NCBI GenBank assembly: GCA_024707225.1
Contig: JANQAE010000004.1
Span: 558,001-622,000, forward strand
DNA from: Dokdonella sp.
Lineage (GTDB): Bacteria > Pseudomonadota > Gammaproteobacteria > Xanthomonadales > Rhodanobacteraceae
DNA length: 64,000 nt
Direction: 5' to 3'
Below are positions 22,672 through 45,783 of the stretch, one piece after another. The position numbers and the translations under genes were made by a program. Every line of letters starts with the position of its first letter. Position 1 is the stretch's first letter. The notes beneath the pieces are model-generated. The model did not search any database. It saw only the letters and a program-made list of their open reading frames with translations, and had not been told where the DNA came from.

Positions 22672-22710
22672 GCGTCCACGGACGGACGCGGCCTGTTCGC
22701 GCGCGGACGC
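22672..22710. promoter_or_regulatory. Tandem dyads upstream of P1, candidate response-regulator sites
   Basis: GCGTCC-N6-GGACGC (22672-22689) is a perfect dyad. A second copy, CTGTTC-N6-GGACGC (22693-22710), follows 21 bp later, about two helical turns. A further GGAC half-site lies at 22719-22722. The same pattern occurs upstream of P3, P4 and P5. Confidence 0.5.
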
Positions 22711-22759
22711 TTACGCGCGGACAGGCAACGCAAGTCGTTGATCGGTCGTGCCGGCCGTT

Positions 22760-22774
22760 TGGCACGGCATTTGG
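22760..22774 (+). promoter_or_regulatory. Sigma-54-like -24/-12 element upstream of P1
   Basis: TGGCACG-GCAT-TTGG lies 61 bases before the P1 start. The -24 box is perfect, but the usually fixed GC of the -12 box reads GG, so this is the weakest of the four elements. It begins exactly 70 bases after the proximal edge of the first dyad. Confidence 0.4.
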
Positions 22775-22835
22775 AGCGGCCTTGACGAAGCCGTGTGTCC
22801 GCCGCACGCGGCGATCCGTATCCTCCGGAGCCGCC

Positions 22836-25250
22836 ATGAGTGTTTCGATCCTGCTGACCGAACTGCGCCGCAGCGCCCGTGCCGCCGCGCACCGCCCCGG
22901 CTTCGTCGGCCTGGCCACGCTGACGCTGGCGCTCGGCATCGGCGCCTGCGCGGCGGTGTTCGCGCTGATCGACGCGATCGTGCTGAAGGCCCCGCCGTAT
23001 CCGCAGCCGGACCGGCTCGCGGTGCTCAGCCAGAGCTACGGCGCGGGCAACTGGTCGGCGCTGTCGCCGCAGCAGTACCGCCTGCTCGCGGACCTGCCCG
23101 GCGTCGAGCGGCTCGGCAGCGCGTTCGCGCCGAAGGACGTCAACGTCGCCGGCGACGGCGAGCCGGCGCTGGTCACCGCCTGGCCGGTCGACGCCGGCCT
23201 GCTGCCGACGCTCGGCGTCGGCCTGGTCCAGGGCCGCAACTTCAGCGCCGAGGAAGACCGGCCCGGCGGCGCGCCGGCGGCGATCCTCGGCCACGCGTTC
23301 TGGCAGCGCCATTTCAACGGCGATCCGGCGGTGATCGGCCGCACGCTCCTCGTCGACGGCGTCGCGACGCCGGTGGTCGGCGTGCTGCCGGCCTCGTTCC
23401 GGCTCGACGCCACGCCGGACCTGCTGGTGCCACTGGCGATGCCGGCGACGACGCGCGACAACGGCACCAATCTGCGCGTGATCGCGCGGCTGGCGCCCGG
23501 CACGACGATCGCCGCAGCAGCCGGCGCGCTCGACGCGCGCCTGGCCGCGCACGGCGCCGAGCTCGGTTTCGGCGAGGCGCGCCGCACGCATTTCACGGCG
23601 ACCTCGCTGGCCGATAACTTCGGTGCCGCGGCCTGGCCGGTACTGTCGCTGTTCTTCGCCTGCGCACTGTGCGTGCTGGTGCTGGTCGCCGTGAATCTGT
23701 CGAACCTGATGCTGCTGCGTGCGGTCGCGCGCAGCCACGACGGCGCGGTGCGCGCCGCACTCGGCGCCAGCGGACGCCAGGCCAGCCTGCCGGCGCTCGC
23801 CGAGGGCCTGCTGATCGGGCTGGCCGGCAGCGGTCTCGGTCTCGCGCTGGCCGGCGCGGCGCTCGCGCTCGGCCGCGCCTGGCTGCCGCCGGACTGGCTG
23901 CCGGCCGATGCGGCGCTGTTCGGTCCGCGCGTGTGGCTGCTCGCGTTCGGCGCCGGCATCGGCGTCGCCGCCTTGTCGGCCGCGTTCGGGGCCGCGCGCG
24001 CGCGCGGCGACACCGCGGTGCGCGAGCTGGTCGCCGGCGCGCGTAGCGGGCTCAGCCGCGGATCGGGCCGGCTCGGCCGCTCGCTGGTCGTCGCCCAGGC
24101 CGCGCTGGCGACCGTGCTGCTGGCCTCCGCGACGCTGCTCGCCCATTCGCTGCTGCGGCTCAACCGCGTCGACCTCGGCTTCGACGCCGGCGGCGTGCTG
24201 GTGTTCCGGCTCAATCCTTCGCCGGGCCTCTATCCGGACGCCGCGGCGATCGAGGACTTCTCGCGCCGTCTGATCGACCGGCTGCGCGCCGAGCCCGGCG
24301 TGCGCGACGCCGCCTTGACGACGAACCTGCCGATCGCCTCGCAGCTCAACCTGCCGGTCAGCATCGGTGCCGATACCGAGGTCTCGGCGATGCAGTTCCG
24401 CGCGGTCAGCCCCGGTTCGTTCGCGACTTTCGGCGTGCCGTTGCTGGCCGGACGCGATTTCGCCGACTCCGACCGCACCGGCGCCGAACCGGTCGCGATC
24501 GTCAACGCCGCGTTCGCGCGGCAGTACTTCGGCGACGACGCGCTCGGCAAGACGCTGCGTCTCGCGCTCGAGTCCGATGCGCCGCCGCTTCGCGTGGTCG
24601 GCGTCGTCGGCGACGTGCGCCAGTTCGGACCGCAGGAGGACGCGCCGCCGATCGTCCACGTCGCGCTCGCGCAGCTGCCCGATCCGGCACTCGCACTGCT
24701 GCGCCAGTTCATTCCGCTCAACGCCGCGATCCGCGTCGACGGCGACGCGGCCCTGTTCGCCGACCGCGCGCGCGCGGCACTGCGCGAGGTCGCGCCGCAG
24801 CAGGGCCTGGCCGCGCTGCGCCTGCTCGAGCGCGACGTCGCCGACGCGACCGCCGGTCAGCGCATGAACGCCGTGCTGATCGGCCTGTTCGCCGGTCTGG
24901 CGCTGCTGCTGGCCGGCGTGGGCCTGTACTCGGTGACCGCCGTCGCGGTCGCGACGCGCCGCCGCGAATACGGCGTGCGTGCCGCGCTCGGTGCCGCGCC
25001 GGCGCGCCTGATGCGCGGCGTCGTCGATGGCGCGCTGCGCGACGTCGCGATCGGCCTGGGTATCGGCCTGCTCGTCGCGCTCGGCGCGAGTCGCCTGCTC
25101 GAGCGCTTCCTGTTCGAGATCGGACCGGCCGATCCGGCCTCGCTCGCGATCACGGTCGCCGCGCTGCTGCTGGCCGGCCTGCTCGCGACCGCGCTGCCGG
25201 CGCTGCGCGCCGCACGCGAGTCGCCGCTGCAGGCGCTGCGCGGGGATTGA
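22836..25250 (+). CDS. P1: ADOP-type ABC transporter permease
   Basis: An 804-residue inner-membrane permease with a duplicated MacB/FtsX layout: helix 1 at about 20-45 (GLATLTLALGIGACAAVFAL), a periplasmic core domain, an FtsX block of three helices from about 268 (AVNLSNLMLLRAVARSHDG), helix 5 at about 415 (LVVAQAALATVLLASATLL), a second periplasmic domain and a second FtsX block from about 680 (GLYSVTAVAVATRRREYGVR). It ends ALRAARESPLQALRGD, the family's typical tail. It has no ATPase domain and no ATPase beside it, so it must borrow one, perhaps that at 35273. GGAG lies six bases before the ATG. The exported substrate, if any, is unknown. It is the only permease here on the plus strand. 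Confidence 0.9.
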   Translation: MSVSILLTELRRSARAAAHRPGFVGLATLTLALGIGACAAVFALIDAIVLKAPPYPQPDRLAVLSQSYGAGNWSALSPQQYRLLADLPGVERLGSAFAPKDVNVAGDGEPALVTAWPVDAGLLPTLGVGLVQGRNFSAEEDRPGGAPAAILGHAFWQRHFNGDPAVIGRTLLVDGVATPVVGVLPASFRLDATPDLLVPLAMPATTRDNGTNLRVIARLAPGTTIAAAAGALDARLAAHGAELGFGEARRTHFTATSLADNFGAAAWPVLSLFFACALCVLVLVAVNLSNLMLLRAVARSHDGAVRAALGASGRQASLPALAEGLLIGLAGSGLGLALAGAALALGRAWLPPDWLPADAALFGPRVWLLAFGAGIGVAALSAAFGAARARGDTAVRELVAGARSGLSRGSGRLGRSLVVAQAALATVLLASATLLAHSLLRLNRVDLGFDAGGVLVFRLNPSPGLYPDAAAIEDFSRRLIDRLRAEPGVRDAALTTNLPIASQLNLPVSIGADTEVSAMQFRAVSPGSFATFGVPLLAGRDFADSDRTGAEPVAIVNAAFARQYFGDDALGKTLRLALESDAPPLRVVGVVGDVRQFGPQEDAPPIVHVALAQLPDPALALLRQFIPLNAAIRVDGDAALFADRARAALREVAPQQGLAALRLLERDVADATAGQRMNAVLIGLFAGLALLLAGVGLYSVTAVAVATRRREYGVRAALGAAPARLMRGVVDGALRDVAIGLGIGLLVALGASRLLERFLFEIGPADPASLAITVAALLLAGLLATALPALRAARESPLQALRGD

Positions 25251-25435
25251 GGTCAGGCGGCGCACGGCCCGAATCGCTTTCACTTGCCACCGCCGATGCA
25301 AAGCCATCAGGACTGCAGCACGCGCCACTGGCGCTTGTTAGCAGCTGTCATGCGGCGTATACCTGGGGATCACCACTGACGGTCTGTGTTACCTTCGGCT
25401 CCCCAAGGGAGACGCGAGCCAGGGGGCATACTGTG

Positions 25436-28727: not shown

Positions 28728-29972
28728 TCAGCGCTCGCGCAGCGTGAACGGATTGAAGCGGTACGCGCCGAGCACGAGCCACGCGGTCGCACCCAGATGC
28801 GGCCGGCGGTAGTAGCGGAAGTCGTCGGTCGTGCTGTCCGGACCGATCGCCAGGCCGGTCGTGATCGACGGGCGGTCGGTCGCATCGAGATAGCCCGAGG
28901 CGCTGCGTACCGACGGCAGCTCGGCGTAGGCGGCACGCGCCTCGCTGCTGCGGCCGGCGCGCCGGTAGATCAGGATCGCCTGTGCGGTGCCCTCGCTCCA
29001 GATGCCGTCGCGATCGGCGTTGAAGTCGAAGCCGCCGCGCACGCCATGCAGGCGCTCGGCCCAGGCCAGCGCGCGCCACCACTCGGCCGGCGCGTCGGGC
29101 AGCAGCAGCGGCCACAGCTGGGCGTCGAGGCCGGACGTGCTCTCGTTCGGCGTGACACCGTCGCTCTGCGTGCCGACGCGGAACCGGCCCTGCGCGGCGT
29201 CCCATTGCGCGGCGACGAAACTGCGCGCCTGCGCGGCATGGATGCGCCAGCGTTCGGCGTCGGCACCGCGCGCGAGCAGGCCGAACACGGCGGCGAGATC
29301 GGCGTTGTGCTCGGTCGACTTCCAGCGCAGCCGCTGCGGCGCGGCATCGAAACCGTGCAGGCCGCCGTCGAAGCCGCCGTCGCCGCGCGTGTCGGCGCTG
29401 TGCGCGAGCGTCCACTCGGCCAGCCGCACGGCCGCCGCACGCCAGGCCGGATCGTCGTCGCGCGCCGCGATCGCGAGCATCGCCAGCGCGGTCCAGGCGA
29501 CGTTGCCGGTCGCGGTGCCCATCTGGTACGCGTCCTCGACCCAGCGCCCCTCGGCGGCATCCCACCAGCCGTTCGGCAGCGGCAGGCCGGTCTCGCCGAG
29601 CGGTCCGGCGCGATACGCATTGCGCAGACGCGCCTCGCCCAGCGCGGCCGCGCGCAGTGCCAGTGCGACGCGGCGCGCCTGTGCGGGCCGGTCGCAGGCG
29701 GTCAGCGCGATCACCGCCAATGCGTTGTCGTAACTGAAGGCCGCGGTCGCGAGCGCGGCCTCGTCGGCGGACGGATCGCCGGCGGCCGGCGCGTCGTAGC
29801 TGCGCAGCAGCAGCGGTCCGTCGCCGGGCACGGCATCGACCTGGGCGGCGATCGCGCGACACGCGGCGCGACCGCCGGCTTGCAACGCGGCCGAGCGCGG
29901 CGCGGCCGCGACGCCGGCAGCGAGCAGACAGCCAGCCAGGATCAATCCGACGCGTCGCGATTCACGCCGCAT
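28728..29972 (-). CDS. Exported alpha/alpha-toroid (six-hairpin glycosidase-like) protein
   Basis: A 414-residue protein with a signal peptide (RRVGLILAGCLLAAGVAA) and a mature part rich in paired helices and Trp/Asp/Gly loops (TAAFSYDNALAVIALT, NGWWDAAEGRWVEDAYQMG, TGNVAWTALAMLAIAARDDD, GGFDFNADRDGIWSEGTAQ). This pattern fits an (alpha/alpha)6 barrel such as cellulase- or polysaccharide-active enzymes, but I do not recognise a specific family. The ATG at 29972 overlaps the end of the kinase gene by 11 bases, so translation is coupled. It is the last gene of the P3 operon. Its link with the permeases is unknown; it might act on an envelope glycan. Confidence 0.75.
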   Translation of the reverse strand: MRRESRRVGLILAGCLLAAGVAAAPRSAALQAGGRAACRAIAAQVDAVPGDGPLLLRSYDAPAAGDPSADEAALATAAFSYDNALAVIALTACDRPAQARRVALALRAAALGEARLRNAYRAGPLGETGLPLPNGWWDAAEGRWVEDAYQMGTATGNVAWTALAMLAIAARDDDPAWRAAAVRLAEWTLAHSADTRGDGGFDGGLHGFDAAPQRLRWKSTEHNADLAAVFGLLARGADAERWRIHAAQARSFVAAQWDAAQGRFRVGTQSDGVTPNESTSGLDAQLWPLLLPDAPAEWWRALAWAERLHGVRGGFDFNADRDGIWSEGTAQAILIYRRAGRSSEARAAYAELPSVRSASGYLDATDRPSITTGLAIGPDSTTDDFRYYRRPHLGATAWLVLGAYRFNPFTLRER

Positions 29973-31353
29973 GGCCGGCACGCTCCAGCGGCAGGCGCAG
30001 CCGCGCGACGCAGCCGCGCGCGTCGCTGCGGTTCTCGAGGCTCAGCGTGCCGCCGTGCGCCTCGACGATCTGACGGGCCAGCACCAGGCCGATGCCCGAG
30101 CCGCCCGGCTTGGTCGTGAAAAACGGTACGAACAGGTTGCGGCTCGGCGGCAGGCCGGGACCCTCGTCGCGGATCTCCACGACCGCATGATCGCCCTCGA
30201 CGCGCCAGCGCAGCGCGACCGCGCGGCCGATGCCGAGCGTCGCGTCGACGGCGTTCTGGACCAGGTTGATCAGCGCCTGCTCGATCTGGTCCGGGTCGAT
30301 CGTCAGCCGCAGCGCGGGACCCGGGTCGACGTCGACCGCAATGCGCTGCTCGAGCCGCGCCACGCGCTGCAGCAGCTCGTCGAACGCGACCGGCCGCGGA
30401 CTCGGCGGCGGCAGCCGCGCCAACGCGGTGTAGCGGCCGATGAAGCGCGACAGCGACTCGGCGCGGTCGCTGACGATCGCCAGGCCGCTGGCGGCGTCCT
30501 CGCGCCAGTCTTCGGGCAGCGGGTCGTGCGCGAGGATCTTGGCCAGCGTCGCGGTCATCGAGCGGATCGGCGTCAGCGAATTGTTGAGTTCGTGGCCGAG
30601 TACGCGCAGCAGGCGCTGCCAGGCCAGGCGCTCCTCCTCGCGCAGCGCGCGGCTCAGATCGCTGATGACGATCAGGTCGTGCGGGCGGCCGTCGTCGCGG
30701 AAGCGCGCATGGCGCACCTCCCAGCGGCCGCTGGCGCCCGGAAAGCTGCGCTCGACCAGGCTCACGGTCGGCATGTCGAAGTACTCGGCGAGGCCGAGCG
30801 AGCTGGCCGGGCGGCCGTCGAGCCGGCTGAACTCGGCACCGAGCAGGCGCTCGCCGGCCGCATTGGCGAGCTTGAGGAAGCCCTCGCCGTCGAACGCGAA
30901 CACGGCGACGTCCAGCGTCTCGATGACCTTGCCGAGCAGGGCGCTCTTCTCCTCGACCGCCAGCCGCTGGCTGCGCAGCGTGTCGGCCAGCGCATTGATC
31001 TCCCAGACCACCTCGCCGACCGCGTCGCCGCCGCGCGCGCGCGCGCCGCGCAGGCTGTAGTCGCCCTCGCGCAGCGCCTCGAGCAGGTTCGACAGCGTCT
31101 GCAGCGGATAGATCGCACGGCGCCGCACCTCGATCGCCAGCACCAGCGTCAGCAGCGCGACGCCGCCCCAGGCCAGTGCGGCGATCCACGGCGACAGCAG
31201 ATAGCCGAGCGCGACCGCCAGCGCGACCGACGCCGGCAGCGTCGCCAGCAGCGTCGCGGCCAGCGTGCGCGTCTCGTAGCGCCAGCGCGACGGGGCCGTT
31301 GCGGGTTTCACGCGGCGCGCCCACGGGCGGCGGCGCTCGGATGAGCGCCGCAC
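29962..31353 (-). CDS. NtrY-like sensor histidine kinase with two adjacent membrane helices
   Basis: A 463-residue sensor kinase. Two helices (about 31-52 and 56-74) are joined by only a few residues (LLSPWIA), so almost nothing faces the periplasm. A HAMP-like linker (IYPLQTLSNLLEALREGDYSLRG) and a PAS-like domain (VFAFDGEGFLKLANAAGERLL) follow. The phospho-acceptor His is at about 254 in VLGHELNNSLTPIRSM, and the ATPase core has NLVQNAVDA, RDEGPGLP and GSGIGLVLARQIVEAHGG. The layout is that of intramembrane-sensing kinases, which read the state of a partner membrane protein. Its cognate regulator is the gene just upstream. A GTG start at 31353 was chosen; a GTG at 31311 is possible. Confidence 0.88.
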   Translation of the reverse strand: MRRSSERRRPWARRVKPATAPSRWRYETRTLAATLLATLPASVALAVALGYLLSPWIAALAWGGVALLTLVLAIEVRRRAIYPLQTLSNLLEALREGDYSLRGARARGGDAVGEVVWEINALADTLRSQRLAVEEKSALLGKVIETLDVAVFAFDGEGFLKLANAAGERLLGAEFSRLDGRPASSLGLAEYFDMPTVSLVERSFPGASGRWEVRHARFRDDGRPHDLIVISDLSRALREEERLAWQRLLRVLGHELNNSLTPIRSMTATLAKILAHDPLPEDWREDAASGLAIVSDRAESLSRFIGRYTALARLPPPSPRPVAFDELLQRVARLEQRIAVDVDPGPALRLTIDPDQIEQALINLVQNAVDATLGIGRAVALRWRVEGDHAVVEIRDEGPGLPPSRNLFVPFFTTKPGGSGIGLVLARQIVEAHGGTLSLENRSDARGCVARLRLPLERAGHAA

Positions 31354-31381: not shown

Positions 31382-32778
<1,397 letters not shown>

Positions 32779-32884
32779 GGCGAGGCTCCAGAATCGGTGG
32801 CGCGCAGACGCACCGGAAAGCGCGCGATGCGCGAGGATCACCCGCCGCCGCGCGGGCGGCAAGCCCGCGCGGCGGCGGCGGCAT

Positions 32885-35276
32885 TCATTCGCTGCGCAAG
32901 GCCAGCATCGGATCGGATGCGGCGGCGCGACGAGCCGGCGACAGCGTCGCCAGCGTGACCGCGACCAGCAGAGCGGCGACGACGCCGGCCACGACCGGCC
33001 AACGCCACGGCGTCGCGCCGTACAGGCTGGCGTCGACCAGGCCGGCCACGGCCCAGGCCGCGGCGAGTCCGGTCAGCGCGCCGGCCAGGCCGATGCAGGC
33101 GCCCTCGCCGACGACGCCGCGGGCCAGACGCGCCGGCGCGGCGCCGATCGCGCTGCGCACGGCGTATTCACGGCGGCGCACCGCCAGCAGGAACGACAGC
33201 ACGACCACGGTGCCCATCAGCGCCAGCACGATCGCCAGCGCCGCGAACACGCGGAACGCGGCCTCGGCCAGCCGGAGGCCGGCCAGCGATGCCTGCGCGC
33301 GATCGGCCAGGCGCACGGTATCGAACAGCGGCACACGCGGATCGACGCCGGCGGCGGCGCGCGCGAGCACGTCGGCGGCCGGCACGCCGCCGCTGCCGCG
33401 TGCGAGCACGACCAGAGTCGACGGCAGCGCCGCGTCCTGCGCATGCGGAATCAGGACCAGGCGCTCCGGCTCGGCCAGCGCGCCGCCGTAGCGGACGTCG
33501 TCGAGCACGCCGACCACGCGGCGCGGCGCGGCCTCGCCGTCGCTGCCCAGGTTCAGCGTGCGGCCGAGCACGTCCTCGCTGCCCCAGACCTGCAGCGCCA
33601 GCGCGCGGCTGACCACCGCGACCGGCGGCTGGTCGGCGGCATCGCGCGCGTCGTCGAGATAGCGACCGTGCAGCAGACTCAGGCCGAGAACGTCGGGCAC
33701 CGGTCCGAGGCTGCTGCTCAGCGCGACGCTGATCTCGAACGGACCGCCGGGACGGTCCGCGCGCAGCGCGGTCTGGCGGCGGTAGCGCTGGAACGGCGCG
33801 GCATCGACGAACGCGACCTCGGCCACGCCGGGCTCGCTGCGCAAGGTCTCGCGCAGCCGCTCGGCGAACACGCGGCGCGCGGCGGGATCCGGATAGGCCG
33901 CCTGCGGCAGCGTCAGGCGCGTCGAGGCGACATCGTCGACGCGCAGGCCGAGTGCGCGCGCGCGGGTGTCGGCGGTGCCGGCGCCGACGCACACGGCGAG
34001 CGCGCCGACCACGGTGGCGCGGCGATCTGCAGCGCGGCCAGGCCGCGAATCGCGCGCAGCGCGCCGCCGCTCGCGCCGGTGCGCGCGCTGCTGCGCGTGG
34101 CCGCCTGCGCGTCGACGCGGCGCAGGCGCGGCCATTGCGACAGCGTCATCAGCACCGCGCAGCCGAACACGATCAGCGGCATCCAGCGCAGCGAGGCGCC
34201 GGCGTAGACGAAGCGGCCCTCGAGCTCGCGCGGAATCCAGTCGGCCGAGATCATGCCGACGACGCGGTCGAACACGCTGCCGCCAAGCAGCCAGCCGAGG
34301 CCGACGCCGAGCGCGGCCAGAAACAGATTCGTCGCGAACGCCTCGACGTGCAGGCGGCGCGCGGTGGCGCCGAGCGCGAGCCGCACCGCGAGCTGCGGCT
34401 CGGCCGCGACCTGGCGGATGTTGATCAGCGTCGCGACGTTGGCGAGCACGACCAGCAGCATCAGCAGCGAGGCGACGAACAGCAGGCCGACCGCCGGCCG
34501 CATCGGCCCCATGACCGAATCGATCACGCGCTCGCCGGCGATCGTCCAGCCCGGCAGATAGCGCGAGGCCGGCGCCGCGGCGACCAGGCGCTGGGCGATC
34601 GTCGCCAGCGCGCCGCGCAGGTCGGCCAGATCGGTGCCGGACTTGAAGCGCACGTTGAGCACGTAGGGCCGCGCCTCGTCGAGGTCGGTGTCGAGATTGC
34701 GCGCATGCGCCGACCACAGGTCGCCGCCCATGAAATGGAAGCGGTCCGGCATCACGCCGACCACCGTGTAGAGCGTGTCCTCGACGCGCAGCGCGCGGCC
34801 GAGCACGTCGGCGGCGCCGCCGAAATGCGATTGCCACAGCGCGTGCGAGATCACCACCGTGGTCGCGCCGGCGGTGTCCGCGGCGGACAGGAAGCGGCCG
34901 AGCGCCGGCGCGACGCCGGTCACCTCGCGCGCCGAGGGCTGGGTCTGCACCAGCAGCATGCGGGTCGGGTAACCGTCCGGTCCCTCGAGCGCGACCGGCC
35001 GGCGCGGCTGGCGACCATCCGGTCGAACAGGTCGCTGTCGCGCAGCGTGCGGTATTCCTCGGCGCTGAAGCCGTACAGGCTGCGCGTATCGGCCGACGCG
35101 CGATGCGTCAGCACGCCGAGCCGCGTCGTGTCGTAGGTCCACGGCGAGACGAAGAAGTTGTGCGCGACGGCGATCGCCGCCAGCAGCACGGCCACCGTCG
35201 CGGCCAGCGTCGCGACGGTGACCGCGTTGGCCGCGCGGTGCTTCCAGGCGCTGCGCAGCACCCGCGCCGGACTCAT
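32885..35276 (-). pseudogene. P2: MacB/FtsX-type permease encoded beside the ATPase, two frameshifts
   Basis: The gene starts with ATG at 35276, overlapping the ATPase stop (ATGA). The first 90 residues ([19 protein letters not shown], helix TVATLAATVAVLLAAIAVA) are followed by a frame switch near 35005 and another near 34020. Adding one base at each restores about 797 residues, the length of the other permeases, with FtsX blocks around LLVVLANVATLINIRQVAAEP and VVLSFLLAVRRREYAVRSAI and the tail PARRAAASDPMLALRSE. It is the permease most likely to pair directly with the adjacent ATPase. If the frameshifts are real, the module has lost it. Confidence 0.85.
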
Positions 35277-35996: not shown

Positions 35997-38414
35997 TCAT
36001 TCCTGCCGCAGCGCGACGACAGGATCGGTGCCGGCCGCGCGGCGCGCCGGCCATAGACAGGCGAGCAGGCCGATCGTGCCGAGCACCAGCGCGACCGCGG
36101 CCAGCGTCGGCAGGTCGAACGTGCCGACCCGGTACAGCCGCGCCGACAGCAGCCGCGCGAACAGCCACGACAACGGCAGGCCGAGCAGCAGGCCGGCGCC
36201 GACCAGCAGCAGGCCCTGCGCGAGCACCTGGCGCAGCACGTGGCCGGCGCGCGCGCCGAGCGCCAGGCGCACGCCGAACTCCGGCACGCGCTGGCGCACC
36301 GTGTAGGCGAGCACCGCGTAGAGGCCGACCGCGGCCAGCAGCAGCGCGGTCGCGCCGAGCAGGCCGAGCAGTGCATTCAGGCGCGTGCGGTCCTTGAGCG
36401 TGTCGGCGACGCGCTCGCCGAGCGTGACGATCGGCCCGAGCGCATCCTTCGGCGCGACCTCCTCGCCGAGCGTCTTCAGCGGCGCGGCCAGCGCGGCCGG
36501 ATCGACCGTCGTGCGCACCGCCAGCGCCGCATACGGCGGCGCCGCGAACGGCTGGTAGACCGCGACGCGATCGGCCACCTCGTCGAGCGAGCGCTGCTTG
36601 AGCGTCGGCGCGACGCCGACGATCGTGACCTCGCGATCGGGACTGTCCGCGCCGGTGCCGATCTTGAAGCGCTGCCCGATCGGATCGGCGTCGCCGAAAT
36701 GGCGCTTCACGAACTGCTCGTCGACCACGGCGACCGGCGCGCCCGTGCGCACGTCCTCGTCGCTGAAGCCGCGGCCGCGCAGGATCGGCATGCCGAGCGC
36801 GGCGAAGTAGCCCGCGTCCACTTTCTGATCGTAGGCGATCGGCTGATCCTTGGCGTCTTCGTTGCCGGGCGCGGTGTAGCTGGTCGTGGCGATGCTGTGG
36901 CCGAACGGAATCATGCTGCCGAGTCCGGCCGCGGCGACACCGGGCAAGGCGCGCACGCGCTCGACCAGCTCGGTCAGGCGCGCGGCGCGCATCTCCGGCG
37001 TCGCGCCGGCCGGCACCAGATCGAACAGGCCGACGTAGAGCAGATGGTCGCGCCGGAAGCCGACGTCCTCGGCCAGCAGGTTCTGCGTACTGCGCAGCAG
37101 CACGCCGATGCCGAACAGCAGCGCGACGGTCAGCGCGACCTGCGCGACGACCAGCGACTTGCGCGCGGTCTGCGCCGCGCCGCTGGCGGTCTGGCGCGAG
37201 CCGCCGCGGCGGATCATGTCGTTGAGATTGCCGCGCTGCACCGCCAGGCCGGCCAGCGCCAGCACGACGCACAGCGCGACCGCGAGCGCGGCCAGCAGCA
37301 GCAAGGTCGGCGCATCGATGCCGATCGCCTGCGGCGTGCCGGTCGGCAGCAGGTCGTAGTGGTGCAGCAGCGCCAGACCGGCCGGCAGCAGCGCGCAGCC
37401 GAGTGCGACGCCGCCGGCGCAGAGGAGCGCCGCCTCGATCAGCGCCGAGCGCGCACGCTGCCACGGCGTCGCGCCGAGCGCGGCGGTGACCGCCGATTCC
37501 TGGCGGCGTCCGAGCGCACGTGCCAGGAACAGGTTGACGACGTTGGCGCCGGTGACCAGCCAGACCATCGACACCGCCAGCAGCATCAGCAGCAGCGCCT
37601 CGCGCCGCTCGCCGGTCCACAGCGCGCGGATCGGCTTGGCCGCCAGCTTGAGGCTGTCGCCGAACGCGCCGTCGAGTTCGGGCAGCGCCTTGGCGATGCC
37701 GTTGAGCTCCTCGCCGACCGGCCCGGGCTCTTCGCCGACGCGCATCCGCGCCAGCGCGCGGGTGCCGTCGAAACTGCCGATGCGCGAGCGCGCGCGGTCC
37801 TCGGCACTGAACGCGAGCGGCATCCAGACGCGGATGTCGCTGGTCGGAAACACGAAGCCCTTCGGCAGCACGCCGATCACGCGGTAGTCCTGGTCCTCCA
37901 GCCGCAATACGCGGCCGACCGCGTCCTCGGCACCGGCGTAGCGCGTCTGCCACTCGTCCCAGGACAGCACGACGCTGCGCGCGGCGCCTTCGGCGACGTC
38001 CTCGCCGGCGAACAGGCGGCCGAGCGCCGGCTGCACGCCGAGCAGGCCGAACACCTGCGGCTCGACCACGGCCGCGTCGAGCGAACCGGTGCGGCGGCCG
38101 GTCTCGTCGCGCAGCACCACGTTCTTCTCGCGCCAGGCGGCGATGCCCTCGAGTCCGCGCGCGGCCTGGCCGATCTCCTCGCGCAGCGGCGTCGACAGCC
38201 CGACGTCGAACGGAATGCCGAGGATGCGCGATTCCACGACCACCAGGCGGTCCGCCTGCGGATACGGCAGCGGCTTGTAGAGCAGGCCGTAGACGACGCT
38301 GAACACGCACGCCAGCGCGCCGAACGCCAGCCCGAGCAGCAGGATCGACACGGCGCTGAAGCCCGGTGCGCGCCACAGGCGGCGGAAGGTCTGGCGAAGA
38401 TCGGACGGGGTCAT
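35997..38414 (-). CDS. P3: ADOP-type ABC transporter permease
   Basis: An 805-residue permease with the duplicated layout: helix 1 FSAVSILLLGLAFGALACVF, first periplasmic domain (LLGVQPALGRLFAGEDVAEG, DEWQTRYAGAEDAVGRVLR), first FtsX block (AVSMVWLVTGANVVNLFLARA, followed by SAVTAALGATPWQRA), helix 5 LVVAQVALTVALLFGIGVLLR, second periplasmic domain and the last FtsX block (AVGLYAVLAYTVRQRVPEFG), ending PARRAAGTDPVVALRQE. It is the first gene of the operon with the ATPase, P2, the regulator and the kinase. A sigma-54-like element and two dyads lie upstream, so it is probably autoregulated by that regulator. Start at 38414. Confidence 0.9.
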   Translation of the reverse strand: MTPSDLRQTFRRLWRAPGFSAVSILLLGLAFGALACVFSVVYGLLYKPLPYPQADRLVVVESRILGIPFDVGLSTPLREEIGQAARGLEGIAAWREKNVVLRDETGRRTGSLDAAVVEPQVFGLLGVQPALGRLFAGEDVAEGAARSVVLSWDEWQTRYAGAEDAVGRVLRLEDQDYRVIGVLPKGFVFPTSDIRVWMPLAFSAEDRARSRIGSFDGTRALARMRVGEEPGPVGEELNGIAKALPELDGAFGDSLKLAAKPIRALWTGERREALLLMLLAVSMVWLVTGANVVNLFLARALGRRQESAVTAALGATPWQRARSALIEAALLCAGGVALGCALLPAGLALLHHYDLLPTGTPQAIGIDAPTLLLLAALAVALCVVLALAGLAVQRGNLNDMIRRGGSRQTASGAAQTARKSLVVAQVALTVALLFGIGVLLRSTQNLLAEDVGFRRDHLLYVGLFDLVPAGATPEMRAARLTELVERVRALPGVAAAGLGSMIPFGHSIATTSYTAPGNEDAKDQPIAYDQKVDAGYFAALGMPILRGRGFSDEDVRTGAPVAVVDEQFVKRHFGDADPIGQRFKIGTGADSPDREVTIVGVAPTLKQRSLDEVADRVAVYQPFAAPPYAALAVRTTVDPAALAAPLKTLGEEVAPKDALGPIVTLGERVADTLKDRTRLNALLGLLGATALLLAAVGLYAVLAYTVRQRVPEFGVRLALGARAGHVLRQVLAQGLLLVGAGLLLGLPLSWLFARLLSARLYRVGTFDLPTLAAVALVLGTIGLLACLWPARRAAGTDPVVALRQE

Positions 38415-38632
38415 GGCGTATCCGGACGGGAAAGGGAGAGCGAAGCGAGCGGCGCAGCGGGCGGCGCACCGGGTATGGCGTCCTCCGCGCCGCGACCGGC
38501 CCTGCGCATCGCCGCCCGCATGGCGACGATGGACACCGCGGGCGGCAGTAGCCGGAGCCGGCAGAGCCGGTGCGGGGCGGCGGAACGGAGCATCGGGACG
38601 GCGCGCAGACGGAGGAAGACCCTTCATGTCTG

Positions 38633-38647
38633 GCACGGAGCATGCCA
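38633..38647 (-). promoter_or_regulatory. Sigma-54-like -24/-12 element upstream of P3
   Basis: On the minus strand TGGCATG-CTCC-GTGC, with the GG and GC pairs ten bases apart as required. The expected transcript start leaves a leader of about 200 bases. The sequence is also part of an inverted repeat (TGGCA-N7-TGCCA). Confidence 0.5.
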
Positions 38648-38708: not shown

Positions 38709-38748
38709 CTGTCCGCTTCCGGTCAGATCGCGGCCCGGATGCGGACAC
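38709..38748. promoter_or_regulatory. Tandem dyads upstream of P3
   Basis: CTGTCC-N6-GGTCAG (38709-38726) and CGGCCC-N6-GGACAC (38731-38748) each differ by one base from GTCC-N6-GGAC and are 22 bp apart. GGATGCGGACA in the second is nearly identical to AGATGCGGACA upstream of P4. Confidence 0.45.
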
Positions 38749-41575: not shown

Positions 41576-41615
41576 CGTCGGCACCGGAGTTCGAGACAGG
41601 GACGATCTAATGGCA

Positions 41616-41630
41616 GCAGGGAACGTGCCA
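41616..41630 (-). promoter_or_regulatory. Sigma-54-type -24/-12 promoter of P4
   Basis: On the minus strand CTGGCACG-TTCC-CTGCT: the -24 box is perfect and the -12 box differs from TTGC by one base, with the correct ten-base GG-GC spacing. The predicted start is about 30 bases before the P4 ATG. Confidence 0.65.
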
Positions 41631-41700: not shown

Positions 41701-41738
41701 GCGTCCAGATGCGGACAGCGCCGCCGCGAATGCGTACA
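41701..41738. promoter_or_regulatory. Tandem dyads upstream of P4
   Basis: GCGTCC-AGATGC-GGACAG (41701-41718) has a perfect GTCC-N6-GGAC core. A second half-site, AATGCGTACA, lies 21 bp further on (41729-41738). The core unit ends exactly 70 bases from the -24 box, the same distance as at P1. Confidence 0.5.
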
Positions 41739-41981
41739 CCGGCAGCGCGCGCGGCCCGCGCCGATCGCGGTCGGCACGGCCGGTGAGCGAAGTCGGGGCG
41801 CCAGCCGAACGCCGCCGCAACCCATGTCCGACATCCGCACGCATTCACGTATCGGAGCTCAGATGCCCGGTCCCGCGAGACGCTCGCATGTCCGCTCCGC
41901 CCTGACTCACGATCCCTGCCGCACCGACGGCAGCGGTGCCCGGCCGTTGGATCGCGGCCGCCGGCCGGCGGCGACGATCCG
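41739..41981. other. Intergenic region upstream of the P4 control sites
   Basis: Between the GumN-like gene stop and the P4 dyads. No gene, hairpin with T-run or repeat was found. Confidence 0.4.
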
Positions 41982-43051
41982 CTACGGCGCCTCGACCTCG
42001 TAGCCGCGCGCCGCGAGCTTGGCGAGCAGACCGTCGGGCTTGAGCACGTCACCGATCGACAGCGTGCCGAAGCTGGTCTCGTGCTCGCGCAACGCCTGCT
42101 CGGCGGCCTCGAGCCAGGCCGCCTCGACGCGTGCCGGCAGGTCGTCGATGCCGCGATCGCGCGCGAAGCGCGTCTGCGCGACCGCGTCGAAGCAGGTGCG
42201 CACCGGCGTGTCCTGCGGCATCGCGCGCAGCGTCTCGATGTCGCCGACGGCCCAGGCGTTGGCGCGCGCGGCCATCGTGCCGAGGTCGGCCTCGAGCCGG
42301 TCGAGCACCTGGCGCAGGCATTCGACGTCGTCCAGCTCCTCGGCCTTGAACGCCTTGATCGCCGCGCGCGGCTCCTGGATCTTGACCTTGACGTGGGTGT
42401 CGATCCTGGCGATGCCGTGCCGCTTGATCGACTTGGACACCACCTTGCCGATCTGGCCCGAGTCGCTGAGCTTGCGCTTGTCGAGCGCCTCGCGGTACAG
42501 CTCGCCGGCCGCGAACAGCGGGCGCCACTTCTCGACCTTGCCGCTGCGGCCGATGTACTTGGCCTTGAGCACCGACCAGCGCGCGTAGAGCTCCGGCGGC
42601 AGGATCTCCTCGAGCGTGCGGCCGTCGGGGTTGTTGCGGATCTTGGCCAGCGACGGCAGCAGCGCCAGCTTGCCGAAGAAGCCGACGTCGGCGTCCAGAT
42701 CGACGCCCGGCGAGGACAGCACGACCTGCGAGCCGGCGATCGTCCGGTCGACGTCGTCGGCCAGCCAGGTCATGTCGCGCGGCAGCGGCGAGAGCGTGCC
42801 GAGGATCCACAGCACGTGACTGCCGCGCGAGACGCGCCACAGACCCGGGCCCGGCTGCACGCCGGTGACGACGATCGTGTCGAGACTGGCGATGTCGGAA
42901 GCGACCGGCTCGGCGGCCGGTGCCGGCTCGGATGCGGGCGCTGCGGTCGCCGGCGGGTCGGCCGGTTGCGCCGATGCGCAGGCCGCCGCGCAAGCAGACC
43001 GATCAGCAGGACACGCACGGCGATCGGGAGACGAACCAGGATACGGCGCAT
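41982..43051 (-). pseudogene. TraB/GumN-family protein, frameshift in the signal peptide region
   Basis: The start (MRRILVRLPIAVRVLLIGLLA) at 43051 is a signal peptide, but the frame changes near 42990. Adding one base gives AAACASAQPAD and joins it to the rest, a 356-residue protein. The mature part carries the GumN/TraB family opening (GLWRVSRGSHVLWILGTLSPLP), the central KYIGRSGKVEKWRPLFAA region, and ends SIGDVLKPDGLLAKLAARGYEV. GumN proteins are periplasmic, protease-like or folding-related in proposals, but unproven. It lies 131 bases downstream of P5 and has no clear promoter of its own. Confidence 0.8.
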
Positions 43052-43182
43052 GCGGCTTTCCGGCGGCTTGAGAGGGGCGGGTCGCACTGCGACCGGCACC
43101 TATCGTAAACGGCCGGCGTGACCTGCGGCAGTCGTTTCCGCCGGACCGGGGCGGCCGGCGGCGCGCACCGCCCGCCAGCGCC

Positions 43183-45624
43183 TCATTCGTCGCGCAGCGC
43201 GACCAGCGGATCGACGCGCAATGCGCGCCGCGTCGGCAGCACGGCGGCCAGCACCAGGACCAGCGCGAGCACGAGGACGACCGCGACGTAGACGCCCGGA
43301 TCGGTCTGCGCGCCCGGCATCATCACGCCGCCGAGCAGTTGCGCGAACGCCAGCGCCAGCGGCACGCCGATCAGCAGGCCGACCAGCACCTGGCGGCCGC
43401 CGCGGCGCAGCGTCATCGCGACGATCGTGCCGGCCGGCGCGCCGAGCGCGCGGCGCACGCCGATCTCGCGCGTGCGCTGCGTGGTCTCGAACGCCAGCAC
43501 CGCATAGACGCCGGCCGCGGTCAGCAGCAGCGCGAACAGCGCGAACGCGCCGAACAGGTTGGCGAGGATGTCCGGCCCCCACATCAGGCTGGCTCGCCAC
43601 GCCTCCATCGGGCGCAGCCAGTACACCGGCAGATTGGCATCCACCGAGGTCACCGCCGCGCGCACGGCCTCGGTCAGCGCCTGCGGGTCGCCGTCGGTGC
43701 GCAGCGCGAAGCTGACGATGTTGCTCGGCGCCTGCGCCAGCGGCCGGAACAGATTGCCGTCGCTGCGGCTGCCGGCCGGCGTCACGCTGGTCTCGATGTA
43801 GTCGGCCTGCACGCTGTCGGCAACCACTCCGACGACCGTCAGCCACGGCGATTCTGGGTTCTTCGGATCGACACGCAGGCGCTCGCCGATCGCGCTGCGG
43901 CCCGGGAACGCGGTCGCCGCCAGGCTGGCGCTGACGATCGCCACGTCCGGCGCGTCGGCACCGTCGCGCGCGTCGAACAGGCGGCCCTCGCGCAGGGCGA
44001 TGCCGAACGCGTCGAAGTAGCCGGCGGTCACGCTGGATGCCCAGATCTGCGGGCGCTGGTTGTCCTCGGCGTACGCATCGCCGGGGCGCTCGTAGCGCTC
44101 GCGGCCGTAGCCCATCAGCGGCAGCGACGTGCCGAAGCCGACCGCATCGACGCCCGGCAGCTCGGCCAGGCGCGGCTGCAAGGCATCGGTCATGCGCAGT
44201 CGCGCGGCCTCGTCCGGATAGTCCGCGTCGAACATCGCGATGCGGCCGGTCAGCACGCCGTCGGTCTGGATGCCGAGCGGCGTGCGCTGCGCGTCGAGCG
44301 CGCTGCGGATCGACACGCCGGCGCAGACCAGCAGGATCACGCACAGCGCGACCTCGCCGGCGACCAGCCAGCGGCCGAGCCGGCCGCGGCCGCCGATGCT
44401 GCCGGCACCGCCCTGGCGCAGGCAGGTCTGCACGTCGACACGGCCGGCCCGCAGCGCCGGCGCCAGGCCGGCCAGCACGGTCGCCAGCAATGCAATGCCG
44501 GCCGTGAAGATCAGATCGCGCGGGTCGACGCGGTAGTCGATCCAGTACGGCAGCTGCGTGCCGCTCGGCGAGGCGTCCATCATGTCGCGCATGAACCAGC
44601 TCGCGAAATCCGCGCCGGCATAGCCGAGTGCGGTCGCGGCCAGCGCGATCGCGAACGTCTCGGTCAGCACCTGCACGATCAGCCGGCCGCGGCTGGCACC
44701 GAGCGCCGCGCGCACGGCCAGCTCGCGCGTACGCGCGGCGAAGCGCGCGATCACCAGGCTGGCGACGTTCGCGCAGGCGATCAGCAGCACCAGCAGCACC
44801 GCGATGAACATCGTCTTGGTCGCCTCGACGATCTGCCCGGGTACGAACTGCTCGGAGAACGACCGCATCCGCGCCTTGTCGCCGCGCAGTGGCTCGCCGC
44901 GCTCGGCCGCCAGCGCGGTCATCGCGGTATCGAAATCGGCGCGCGCCTGCGCCGCCGAGACACCCTCGGCCAGACGGCCGAAGGTCTGCAGTCGCGCGTA
45001 CGAGGCCGCCGCGGCGGCGCGGTCGGTCACGATCGGCATCCAGATCCGCTCGGCCGACGGAAACGCGAAGTCGCGCGGCATCACGCCGACGATCCGCGTC
45101 GGCACGCCGTTGACGCGCAGGCTGCGGCCGATCACGGCGGGATCGGAATTGAACTGCAGCTCCCAGGTGCGATACGCGATCAGCGCGACCGGCTCGGCGC
45201 CGGCCGCCGCGTCGGCCGCCGCGAAGTCGCGTCCCATGACCGGCCGCACGCCGAGCGTGCCGAGCGCATCGACGCTGAGCCAGGCACCGGACAACCGCTC
45301 GGCCGGACCGGCCAGACCGCCGATGTTGGCGGTGCCGACCCAGTAGGCTTCCAGCGAGGCCAGCGTCTTCTGACGCTCGCGCAGATCGAGCCAGTCCACG
45401 GTCGGCAGCGCCAGATTGCGCTGCGTGTTGCGGCTGTCGGTGTAGCTGAACGCGACCAGCCGGTCGGCCTGCGCGAACGGCAAGGGTTTCAACACCATCG
45501 CATTGAGGCTGCCGAACATGAAGATCGACAGCCCGATGCCGACCGCCAGCATCAGCACGGCGACCACGGTGAAGGCCGGACTGCGCAGCAGCGCGCGCAG
45601 GGCGAAACGGATGTCACGGATCAT
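43183..45624 (-). CDS. P5: ADOP-type ABC transporter permease
   Basis: An 813-residue permease: helix 1 FTVVAVLMLAVGIGLSIFMF, first periplasmic domain (TLGVRPVMGRDFAAADAAAG), first FtsX block (LLIACANVASLVIARFAART, RELAVRAALGASRGRL), helix 5 LVAGEVALCVILLVCAGVS, second periplasmic domain and last FtsX block (AAGVYAVLAFETTQRTREIG), ending PTRRALRVDPLVALRDE. GGGGAG lies seven bases before the ATG. It has the best -12 match of the sigma-54 elements upstream. No ATPase is adjacent; the next gene downstream on the strand is the GumN-like one. Confidence 0.9.
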   Translation of the reverse strand: MIRDIRFALRALLRSPAFTVVAVLMLAVGIGLSIFMFGSLNAMVLKPLPFAQADRLVAFSYTDSRNTQRNLALPTVDWLDLRERQKTLASLEAYWVGTANIGGLAGPAERLSGAWLSVDALGTLGVRPVMGRDFAAADAAAGAEPVALIAYRTWELQFNSDPAVIGRSLRVNGVPTRIVGVMPRDFAFPSAERIWMPIVTDRAAAAASYARLQTFGRLAEGVSAAQARADFDTAMTALAAERGEPLRGDKARMRSFSEQFVPGQIVEATKTMFIAVLLVLLIACANVASLVIARFAARTRELAVRAALGASRGRLIVQVLTETFAIALAATALGYAGADFASWFMRDMMDASPSGTQLPYWIDYRVDPRDLIFTAGIALLATVLAGLAPALRAGRVDVQTCLRQGGAGSIGGRGRLGRWLVAGEVALCVILLVCAGVSIRSALDAQRTPLGIQTDGVLTGRIAMFDADYPDEAARLRMTDALQPRLAELPGVDAVGFGTSLPLMGYGRERYERPGDAYAEDNQRPQIWASSVTAGYFDAFGIALREGRLFDARDGADAPDVAIVSASLAATAFPGRSAIGERLRVDPKNPESPWLTVVGVVADSVQADYIETSVTPAGSRSDGNLFRPLAQAPSNIVSFALRTDGDPQALTEAVRAAVTSVDANLPVYWLRPMEAWRASLMWGPDILANLFGAFALFALLLTAAGVYAVLAFETTQRTREIGVRRALGAPAGTIVAMTLRRGGRQVLVGLLIGVPLALAFAQLLGGVMMPGAQTDPGVYVAVVLVLALVLVLAAVLPTRRALRVDPLVALRDE

Positions 45625-45688
45625 GCAGGGCTCCCCTCTCGCGTGGCGCGGCGCCAGCGGCCGGTCGTCGGTACGTGACCTGCGTGAC

Positions 45689-45703
45689 GCAAGTTCCGCG
45701 CCA
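45689..45703 (-). promoter_or_regulatory. Sigma-54-type -24/-12 promoter of P5
   Basis: On the minus strand TTGGCGCG-GAAC-TTGCG: one mismatch in the -24 box, a perfect TTGC and correct ten-base spacing. The predicted start is about 50 bases before the P5 ATG. Confidence 0.6.
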
Positions 45704-45743
45704 AGGCGTGAGAGGCGCGAGCGCGCGCGCGCGTGGGGTTCGG

Positions 45744-45783
45744 GCGTTCGGAAGCGGACGGCAGTGTCCGGTTACGGTGCCAA
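45744..45783. promoter_or_regulatory. Tandem dyads upstream of P5
   Basis: GCGTTC-GGAAGC-GGACGG (45744-45761) differs from GTCC-N6-GGAC by one base. A weaker second copy, GTCC-GGTTAC-GGTG (45766-45779), follows 20 bp later. The gap to the -24 box is 40 bases. Confidence 0.4.

What the first reader, a model, noticed from the sequence alone, without database searches (positions are those of the whole stretch)
22672..45783. Shared sigma-54 promoter plus tandem GTCC-N6-GGAC dyads upstream of four permease genes
P1 (22760), P3 (38633-38647), P4 (41616-41630) and P5 (45689-45703) each have a -24/-12 element with correct GG-N10-GC-type spacing, although P1 has a GG in the -12 box. Upstream of each is a dyad near GTCC-N6-GGAC, repeated 20-22 bp further along. 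Cores: GTCCACGGACGGAC (P1), GTCCAGATGCGGAC (P4), GTTCGGAAGCGGAC (P5), GTCCGCTTCCGGTC (P3). A sigma-54 activator is encoded in the P3 operon. Together this suggests a regulon with a definable binding motif.
Basis: partly seen in the sequence, partly recalled or inferred. Interest (0 to 1): 0.88.

Follow-up and report, generated by a model that had tools for sequence, protein, structure and literature searches.

The report
Sigma-54 enhancer code for orphan permeases
Scattered transporter-permease genes in this bacterium and its relatives share one kind of on-switch, a sigma-54 promoter with a conserved palindromic enhancer placed on one face of the DNA helix, which probably lets a single sensor-regulator pair switch them on together with the ATPase and adaptor that most of them lack.

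Summary
Sigma-54 matches alone are no more frequent than chance in the window, but the four with dyads are exactly those before ADOP-family (TIGR03434) permease genes. Independent data support a regulon. In the same genome 7 of 8 ADOP units have the promoter-dyad pair. Leaving out window, this genome and its sibling, sigma-54 sites before ADOP or adaptor genes have the dyad in 20 of 24 cases, other sites in 3 of 54, and GTCC-N6-GGAC ranks first of 3,328 palindromes (11 seen, 0.14 expected). Unselected columns extend it to YGTCCG-N4-CGGACR; copies keep helical phase; about half have a second copy 20-22 bp away; a third have an IHF-like site. Best reading: an NtrC-type enhancer regulon, probably driven by the HK/RR pair of the P3 operon, co-expressing ATPase-less permeases with shared ATPases and an adaptor. 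The binder is inferred; the RR ORF is frame-broken here before its HTH. One strong pairing in the genome precedes a non-permease gene. Sigma-54 enrichment at this permease class was reported in 2025; ten searches found no paper on the enhancer or regulator.

The parts
22760..22775 (+). P1 -24/-12 element TGGCACG-N4-TTGGA (GG instead of GC at -12)
   Evidence: 13.8 bits; the TTGGA -12 box is the same in sibling G005 (L143)
22674..22687 (+). P1 dyad GTCC-ACGGAC-GGAC, start at -86
   Evidence: exact; the same 14 bases and near flanks in G005, there at -107
22695..22708 (+). P1 second dyad GTTC-GCGCGC-GGAC, 21 bp on, start at -65
   Evidence: 1 mismatch
22731..22743 (-). IHF-like site GATCAACGACTTG between dyads and P1
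   Evidence: 1 mismatch to WATCAANNNNTTR; GTTGATCGG conserved in G005
22836..25250 (+). P1 gene, ADOP duplicated permease, 804 aa
   Evidence: TIGR03434 631.6 bits, over cut-off 622.3; MacB_PCD + FtsX
38632..38647 (-). P3 -24/-12 element TGGCATGCTCCGTGCC (weakest; near-palindromic, also scores on +)
   Evidence: 11.0 bits; counterpart TGGCATGCTCTGTGCC in G005
38711..38724 (-). P3 dyad GACC-GGAAGC-GGAC, start at -77
   Evidence: 1 mismatch; counterpart in G005
38733..38746 (-). P3 second dyad GTCC-GCATCC-GGGC, start at -99
   Evidence: 1 mismatch
35997..38414 (-). P3 gene, ADOP permease
   Evidence: TIGR03434 654.9 bits
35273..35959 (-). ABC ATPase (DarD/MacB-like), second gene of the P3 operon
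   Evidence: ABC_tran 1.4e-31; best NCBIfam DarD 239.6 bits, under its cut-off of 375
32885..35270 (-). further ADOP permease, split over two reading frames in this assembly (5' limit approximate)
   Evidence: TIGR03434 pieces at C2:590888-592117 and 592021-592977; 222.5 bits for the C-terminal piece
31429..32862 (-). sigma-54 response regulator (REC + AAA+); ORF leaves frame before the HTH
31388..31534 (-). Fis-type HTH_8 of that regulator, in another frame
   Evidence: PF02954 3e-16
29962..31353 (-). sensor histidine kinase; by eye two TM segments with almost no periplasmic loop
   Evidence: HATPase_c 1.1e-20, HisKA below and PAS_4 just above their cut-offs; sequence
41615..41630 (-). P4 -24/-12 element TGGCACGTTCCCTGCT
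   Evidence: 16.3 bits, best in window; 16 of 16 bases identical in G005
41703..41716 (-). P4 dyad GTCC-GCATCT-GGAC, start at -86 (no convincing second copy)
   Evidence: exact; one of 74 exact sites in the genome
39173..41575 (-). P4 gene, ADOP-like permease (under the family cut-off)
   Evidence: TIGR03434 515.2 bits against cut-off 622.3
45688..45703 (-). P5 -24/-12 element TGGCGCGGAACTTGCG
   Evidence: 12.4 bits
45746..45759 (-). P5 dyad GTCC-GCTTCC-GAAC, start at -56
   Evidence: 1 mismatch; exact (GTCCGTTTCTGGAC) at the same -56 place in G005
45766..45779 (-). P5 second dyad CACC-GTAACC-GGAC, start at -76
   Evidence: 2 mismatches
43183..45624 (-). P5 gene, ADOP permease
   Evidence: TIGR03434 748.2 bits
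47713..64000 (-). run of 7 ADOP genes, the last cut by the window end; its promoter lies outside the window at G000:C2 near 625213, before an HlyD adaptor and a second ABC ATPase
   Evidence: L136 promoter TGGCACGGGTCCTGCT with exact dyad at -77; HlyD_3 and ABC_tran

Best explanation
P1, P3, P4 and P5 are sigma-54 promoters of one enhancer regulon for ADOP-family efflux-type permeases. A phosphorylated NtrC-type response regulator, most likely the one encoded in the P3 operon and controlled by the adjacent histidine kinase, binds palindromes YGTCCG-N4-CGGACR placed about 56 to 110 bp upstream of the -24 box on one face of the helix, often as pairs 20-22 bp apart. IHF, where its site is present, bends the DNA so that the AAA+ hexamer reaches RNA polymerase-sigma-54. 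Most ADOP units have no ATPase or adaptor of their own, so the regulon would co-express scattered permeases with the ATPase of the P3 operon and the adaptor and ATPase of the large ADOP operon. SHOWN by sequence statistics: promoter-dyad association, conservation, phasing, IHF-like sites, gene targets. INFERRED: binding by this RR, autoregulation, shared ATPase, and the signal (perhaps envelope damage or a peptide sensed in the membrane, from the kinase's two TM segments with almost no periplasmic loop).
For: Own genome: 7 of 8 ADOP units (grouped by eye) have a sigma-54 site with dyad: P1, P3, P4, P5, C2:625k, C2:216k, C1:1762k; rpoN present. Lysobacterales loci without G000/G005: GTCC-N6-GGAC ranks first of 256 half-sites x 13 spacers upstream of 48 sites of 13 bits or more, 11 seen against 0.14 expected; also first at 11 bits. 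Sites of 12.3 bits or more before an ADOP or adaptor gene have a dyad at 1 mismatch or less in 31 of 35 cases, the rest in 3 of 57; without window, G000 and G005, 20 of 24 against 3 of 54 (which mends). Columns not used for selection, 41 dyads outside the window: Y 40, G 34, C 34, R 41. Helical phasing: vector length 0.63 for 23 exact dyads (p 0.0014), 0.59 for 45 (0 of 5000 random sets). Second copy at 20-22 bp in 16 of 31 non-window promoters; 12 control distances 0-5. IHF-like site in 11 of 34 dyad promoters against 0.23 by shuffling; 1 of 58 other sites. ADOP genes over the cut-off in 10 of 20 relatives that I chose, 9 of which hold a close RR homologue (62% identity or more), against 0 of the 10 others. 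Of 11 RR loci with 16 kb or more upstream, 8 have a dyad promoter on the RR strand and a ninth a GTTC-N6-GAAC variant.
Against: The RR ORF here loses frame before the HTH, and a permease of the same operon is split, so the activator may be dead in this strain (or these are assembly indels). The close RR homologues read have GAFTDA or GAYTDA, not GAFTGA. A paralogous RR with a similar recognition helix has promoters with the same half-site in another arrangement, so the binder is not unique on sequence grounds. One ADOP unit (C1:1131706) has no such promoter. Of the 4 strong exact pairings in the own genome found by pattern, 1 (C4:477k) precedes a small non-permease gene. Dyad alone and sigma-54 sites alone are at chance, and even the loose combined pattern is near its control (12 places against 9). 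P3 is a weak sigma-54 match. Lead permeases L184 (G006) and L185 (G036) have sigma-54 sites but no good dyad at the usual distance, and for 3 of 13 blind stretches (L188, L190, L191) no sigma-54 site was reported. Among RR loci with less upstream DNA only 6 of 33 show a dyad promoter. Related loci are not independent, so p-values overstate.
Confidence: 0.77

Rival explanations
1. The promoters are genuine sigma-54 enhancer promoters, but the dyads are bound mainly by another NtrC-type activator, such as the paralogous RR at G000:C4:83372, with the P3-operon RR minor or inactive.
For: The paralogue has a similar recognition helix (LGLSRQALYRRMDKLGV against LGLSRPALYRRMEKYGI), and the promoters of its own operon in 8 genomes carry GTCC half-sites. 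The window RR is frame-broken.
Against: The paralogue's sites have a different syntax (direct repeats 10-11 bp apart plus GGACACTGTCC in 6 of 8 loci). The 10 of 20 relatives without an ADOP over the cut-off have RR matches of 45-48% at best, and one of them, G009, shows the paralogue's operon and promoter, so the ADOP set follows the close RR homologue, not the paralogue.
Confidence: 0.15
2. A decaying regulon: the promoters are relics, because this strain has lost a working regulator and parts of the pump.
For: Frame breaks in the RR and the second ADOP of the P3 operon, and perhaps at the start of the adaptor.
Against: A flavoprotein gene at 17.9-19.6 kb also shows a frame change against the sibling, which fits scattered assembly indels; dyads are conserved, and the 14 full-length ADOP matches have open frames of about 800 aa or more, one with a TGA reported in the matched stretch.
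Confidence: 0.1
3. Chance: degenerate palindromes and -24/-12 look-alikes in a 72% GC genome.
For: Neither element alone is enriched, and the loose combined pattern hardly exceeds its control.
Against: The tests of the scored combination, above all those without the window.
Confidence: 0.02

Closest known systems
sigma-54 enrichment at COG0577 / FtsX-like ABC permeases (PMC12316311, 2025; passages read)
   Same: Reports predicted sigma-54 promoters enriched before this permease class in Gammaproteobacteria, Opitutia and Bacteroidia, and calls it the first evidence of the link.
   Different: The passages I read name no enhancer motif, no cognate activator, no ADOP regulon and no shared-ATPase logic.
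DVU2894 sites of Desulfovibrio vulgaris (PMC4641369; passages read)
   Same: Same geometry: palindrome yGTCA-N6-TGACr upstream of DVU2894 orthologues, a sigma-54-type regulator.
   Different: Half-site GTCA instead of GTCC; flagellar one-component regulator.
NtrC/AtoC/ZraR-type two-component activators
   Same: REC + AAA+ + Fis HTH architecture in the relatives; tandem upstream sites, IHF-like site and -24/-12 promoter.
   Different: Of the 25 NCBIfam models shown none reaches its cut-off (AtoC 357 of 714, ZraR 327 of 760); loop motif GAFTDA; targets are ADOP permeases.
Bce-type sensor/permease modules (recalled)
   Same: Large FtsX-fold permeases next to a kinase with a minimal periplasmic loop.
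   Different: Sigma-54 instead of OmpR-type control, scattered targets, one RR; no flux-sensing evidence here.
GlrR of enterobacteria, TGTC-N10-GACA (recalled)
   Same: TGTC/GACA outer half-site letters and sigma-54 control.
   Different: Spacing differs; here TGTC-N8-GACA with CG/CG inside.

Membership tests
sigma-54-dependent promoter | -24/-12 element GG-N10-GC | tested here: met
   P3, P4, P5 yes; P1 has GG at -12, as has its sibling
sigma-54-dependent promoter | rpoN in the genome | tested here: met
   TIGR02395, 474.7 bits against cut-off 277.35
sigma-54-dependent promoter | transcription lost without rpoN | not testable with these tools
   needs RNA data
NtrC-type enhancer (UAS) | palindromic sites upstream, phased with the promoter | tested here: met
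NtrC-type enhancer (UAS) | IHF site between enhancer and promoter (common, not universal) | tested here: inconclusive
   11 of 34 promoters at 1 mismatch or less; of P1, P4 and P5 only P1; P3 was below that call's threshold
NtrC-type enhancer (UAS) | binding by the named activator | not testable with these tools
   needs footprinting
NtrC-family response regulator (P3 operon) | REC + sigma-54 AAA+ + Fis-type HTH in one protein | tested here: inconclusive
   REC and AAA+ in the ORF; HTH_8 only in another frame in this assembly; the G005 homologue runs on in one frame through the HTH
NtrC-family response regulator (P3 operon) | GAFTGA loop | tested here: not met
   GAFTDA here. Of 94 related ORFs, some of them the same locus twice, 79 have GAFTDA, 14 GAYTDA, and 1, the distant paralogue L140, neither. 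PMC4641369 counts GAFTDA and GAYTDA among variants that would keep activity (passage)
ADOP family TIGR03434 | score over the curated cut-off 622.3 | tested here: met
   P1 631.6, P3 654.9, P5 748.2 are over; P4 with 515.2 is not

The most novel reading that the evidence does not exclude
One old HK/RR-sigma-54 circuit, whose close RR homologues reach from Lysobacterales to Verrucomicrobia and Acidobacteria and whose enhancer half-site drifts (GTCC-N6-GGAC in Lysobacterales, TCCC-N6-GGGA in Verrucomicrobia), runs a modular pump: many scattered ATPase-less ADOP permeases expressed together with one or two shared ATPases and one adaptor, so that permeases are exchangeable specificity subunits. A sister two-component system reads the same half-site in a different syntax.
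Probability: 0.35. Interest if true: 0.72.

Novelty: new member of a known kind. Interest (0 to 1): 0.58.

Why it matters
Permeases of this kind can be numerous and poorly understood (102 'acidobacterial orphan permeases' in one acidobacterial MAG; PMC10564751, passage read). A defined enhancer code and a likely cognate activator make their co-expression, shared ATPase and signal directly testable, give a regulon-finding rule for other genomes, and offer a natural pair of paralogous activators that seem to share a half-site but not its arrangement.

Tried and rejected
Single-dyad enrichment: not found in the whole genome nor in the first spacing spectrum of the 80 loci; only the combination with sigma-54 sites is informative.

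Combined genome pattern: the first try had a wrong GG-N11-GC spacing (7 and 4 places, controls 7 and 9) and is kept as an accidental control. With the right spacing there were 12 places against 9 control places, so the loose pattern is not itself enriched. Only after scoring do 4 distinct pairings of 12 bits or more stand out: P4, two ADOP-unit promoters (C1:1762k, C2:625k) and C4:477k before a small exported repeat protein. C3:190k, found by the wrong-spacing search, has 11.2 bits.

Small exported protein as part of this regulon: undecided. 9 of 40 genomes have it, among them G009, which has no close RR homologue; 5 of its 9 promoters have no N6 dyad at 1 mismatch or less even with Y/R allowed.

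The adaptor query was a wrong-frame 100-aa translation, so its adjacency test (21 of 23 against 13 of 69) was in effect an ADOP test; redone with the 418-aa HlyD ORF (10 of those 13 'non-adjacent' dyad sites then proved to be adaptor promoters). One control half-site (CCGT/ACGG) reached 9 of 23.

P3 read on the + strand: 12.1 bits, because the element is nearly palindromic; I saw no fitting + strand gene.

Literature: ten full-text searches listed no paper that I could see to describe this enhancer or regulon; I saw listings, and passages of four papers. Most subscription papers are not covered. AlphaFold and fold searches were not used.

The sigma-54 matrix was written from recalled consensus knowledge, not fitted to data. 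The IHF consensus and the GlrR and Bce comparisons are also recalled.

Full report
WHAT IS THERE. The window (72% GC; G000:C2:558001-622000, genome of 4.37 Mb; Lysobacterales, judging by the organisms with the closest RR homologues) holds a large set of ADOP-family duplicated permeases (TIGR03434). The genome has 25 matches, of which 14 are full-length and 12 of these over the cut-off. All four reported -24/-12 elements and their dyads exist at the stated places. The P4 second copy does not: nothing within two mismatches lies 20-22 bp from the P4 dyad.

CHANCE IN THE WINDOW. Sigma-54-like sites alone are not enriched: 9 of 10.9 bits or more, 9.15 expected. The dyad alone is not enriched in the genome: 74 against 80 for the reversed control. 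What is special is the pairing: of the 9 sites exactly P1, P3, P4 and P5 have a dyad at 1 mismatch or less at -120 to -40; the other 5 have none. In an even 400-kb sample of the genome, 0 of 32 sites of 12 bits or more has a perfect GTYC-N6-GRAC dyad, and 2 of 32 have GTCC-N6-GGAC at 1 mismatch or less.

TEST IN THE SAME GENOME. Grouped by eye, the full-length ADOPs form eight transcription units: the four above, the seven-gene run led by an HlyD adaptor and an ATPase, and three units elsewhere. Strong sigma-54 sites with dyads lead the seven-gene unit (L136, 16.3 bits, exact dyad at -77), C1:1762k (L139, 17.8 bits, exact dyad at -57) and C2:216k (L137, 16.8 bits, one-mismatch dyads at -87 and -65); C1:1131k has none (best 1.6 bits). 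So 7 of 8 units. Twenty further stretches of 2.5 kb, around exact dyads that I chose from the 50 sites listed (74 exist; I took mostly the more symmetrical ones), have no site of 9 bits or more 45-180 bp downstream: 0 of 20. Among places found by pattern, one strong pairing (C4:477k, 14.8 bits, two exact dyads at -135 and -111) precedes a small exported protein, not a permease.

TEST IN RELATIVES. Homologues of the P3-operon response regulator were fetched (80 loci; 40 genomes searched). Upstream of sigma-54 sites of 13 bits or more in Lysobacterales loci without this genome or its sibling (48 sites, 30 loci), I counted all palindromes with a 4-base half-site and a spacer of 0-12: GTCC-N6-GGAC came first, 11 seen against 0.14 expected; its inner frame TCCG-N4-CGGA second. 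At 11 bits it also came first. Among 92 sites of 12.3 bits or more (window, G000, G005 and relatives; P3 is below this threshold), those before an ADOP or adaptor gene have the dyad in 31 of 35 cases, the rest in 3 of 57 (Fisher 8.6e-17); without window, G000 and G005 the counts are 20 of 24 and 3 of 54 (7.7e-12). For the ADOP-adjacent sites, altered spacers or half-sites give 0-9 of 23, against 21 of 23. In G005, the closest sibling, the P1, P3, P4 and P5 counterparts keep their elements while flanks diverge. Lead or orphan ADOPs of relatives were fetched without knowing their promoters (13 stretches): 10 had a sigma-54 site of 10 bits or more. Dyads, with Y/R allowed: perfect at L179, L180, L182, L187, L189; one mismatch at L181, L183, L186, and at L184 only at -136; none at L185. 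L188, L190 and L191 had no site reported.

SHAPE OF THE SITE. From 41 dyads outside the window, columns that were not part of the selection are nearly fixed: Y before the dyad 40, inner G 34, inner C 34, R after it 41 of 41, giving YGTCCG-N4-CGGACR. Start positions cluster near -57, -66, -77, -88, -100 and -109: vector length 0.63 for 23 exact dyads (p 0.0014) and 0.59 for 45 dyads (0 of 5000 random sets), best of periods 10-11 bp (window included). A second copy 20-22 bp away occurs in 16 of 31 promoters outside the window, against 0-5 for 12 other distances and 4 at 29-31 bp. An IHF-like site at -28 to -41 occurs in 11 of 34 dyad promoters, against 0.23 expected from simple shuffling, and in 1 of 58 other sites. 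This is the textbook anatomy (recalled) of an NtrC-type, IHF-assisted sigma-54 promoter.

THE REGULATOR. The P3 operon reads ADOP, ABC ATPase, ADOP, response regulator, histidine kinase. Such RRs tend to lie downstream of dyad promoters: among 11 Lysobacterales RR loci with 16 kb or more upstream (G005 included), 8 have one on the RR strand and L147 a GTTC-N6-GAAC variant; L152 has one only on the other strand, L153 none. Of 33 RR loci with less upstream DNA, 6 show one; several are shorter copies of the same loci, and in this genus the adaptor promoter lies about 13-15 kb upstream. Full ADOPs and a close RR homologue go together: of 20 relatives chosen from 39, 10 have an ADOP over the cut-off, and 9 of these have the RR at 62% identity or more; of the other 10 none has (the exception, G006, is 85% complete). 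In this assembly the RR ORF leaves frame between about 31546 and 31534, and the Fis-type HTH (HTH_8, 3e-16) lies in another frame; in the sibling the homologue runs on through it. A flavoprotein gene also shows a break against the sibling, so assembly indels are likely but unproven. The close homologues read have GAFTDA or GAYTDA in place of GAFTGA (93 of 94 ORFs, the other being a distant paralogue). PMC4641369 lists both among variants expected to work (passage); PMC10714721 leaves the question open for VfmH (passage).

BEYOND LYSOBACTERALES. In the loci of other phyla (37 sites of 13 bits or more, 26 loci) the top palindrome is TCCC-N6-GGGA, 10 seen against 0.17 expected, with GGGA-N8-TCCC close behind. 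At 12.5 bits, 10 exact sites lie at -110 to -114, all in Verrucomicrobia loci, with a second half-site 22 bp on by eye; two nearly identical Acidobacteria loci (L106, L128) have one at -148. So for Acidobacteria the enhancer is open. The recognition helix there is mostly SRSA[FL]YRR, against SRPALYRR or TRQSLYRR and others in Lysobacterales. A paralogous RR system (47% identical here) has an element of its own: GTCC half-sites 10-11 bp apart followed by GGACACTGTCC in 6 relatives (L193-L198), looser in G005 (L192) and in this genome (L140).

MECHANISM AND STATUS. Shown: the promoter-enhancer code and its gene targets, as statistics. Inferred: the binder, autoregulation, the shared ATPase (in this genome's searched stretches two ATPases of this type were found, in the P3 operon and the large operon, and none in the 10-kb stretches around the three outlying ADOPs), and the signal. 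Known before: sigma-54 enrichment at COG0577 permeases (PMC12316311, passages). I found no paper with the enhancer, the regulator or the ADOP regulon.

CAVEATS. The loci are related, and only identical promoter stretches were merged; p-values therefore overstate. Thresholds and the sigma-54 matrix are mine; sites of 11 to 13 bits include chance matches. Nothing here measures expression or binding.

Noticed in passing
window 31388-31546: The sigma-54 response regulator changes frame just before its HTH; HTH_8 lies intact in another frame. Assembly indel or real loss not decided.
   Followed up: partly
window 32885-35270: Second ADOP of the P3 operon is split over two overlapping frames.
   Followed up: partly
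window 17894-19551: Flavoprotein (Pyr_redox plus thioredoxin-like) whose C-terminus is in another frame compared with the sibling genome.
   Followed up: no
L193-L198; looser in L192, L140 (paralogous RR operons): Conserved enhancer of another syntax: TGTCC repeated 10-11 bp apart, then GGACACTGTCC, before sigma-54 sites of up to 18.2 bits.
   Followed up: partly
G000:C4:477144-477723 (L178, L199): 139-aa exported-looking protein with LPTVTVVA-like repeats behind a sigma-54 site with two exact GTCC-N6-GGAC dyads; matched only in this genus (9 of 40 genomes), sigma-54 site present in 9 of 9, no Pfam match.
   Followed up: partly
L089, L091, L092, L095, L101, L102, L108 (Verrucomicrobia): TCCC-N6-GGGA enhancer at -110 to -114 with a second half-site 22 bp on, upstream of sigma-54 sites in RR loci.
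   Followed up: partly
RR homologues in L056-L155: GAFTDA or GAYTDA replaces GAFTGA in the close homologues read.
   Followed up: partly
window 28728-29981: 417-aa gene after the kinase, 84% identical in the sibling, no Pfam family at 0.001; has a signal-peptide-like start.
   Followed up: no
G000:C1:1525592-1525635: Two exact GTCCG-N4-CGGAC dyads 30 bp apart without a sigma-54 site downstream; some other use of the palindrome?
   Followed up: partly
L147 and L146, minus strand, offsets 16246 and 18350 from the locus end: Strong sigma-54 sites (16.7 bits) with a CRP-like TGTGA-N6-TCACA palindrome upstream, perfect in L147, imperfect in L146.
   Followed up: no
G000:C2:425-438 and C2:855544-855557: The same palindrome GTCCTAATAAGGAC near both ends of contig C2; perhaps a repeated contig end.
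   Followed up: no
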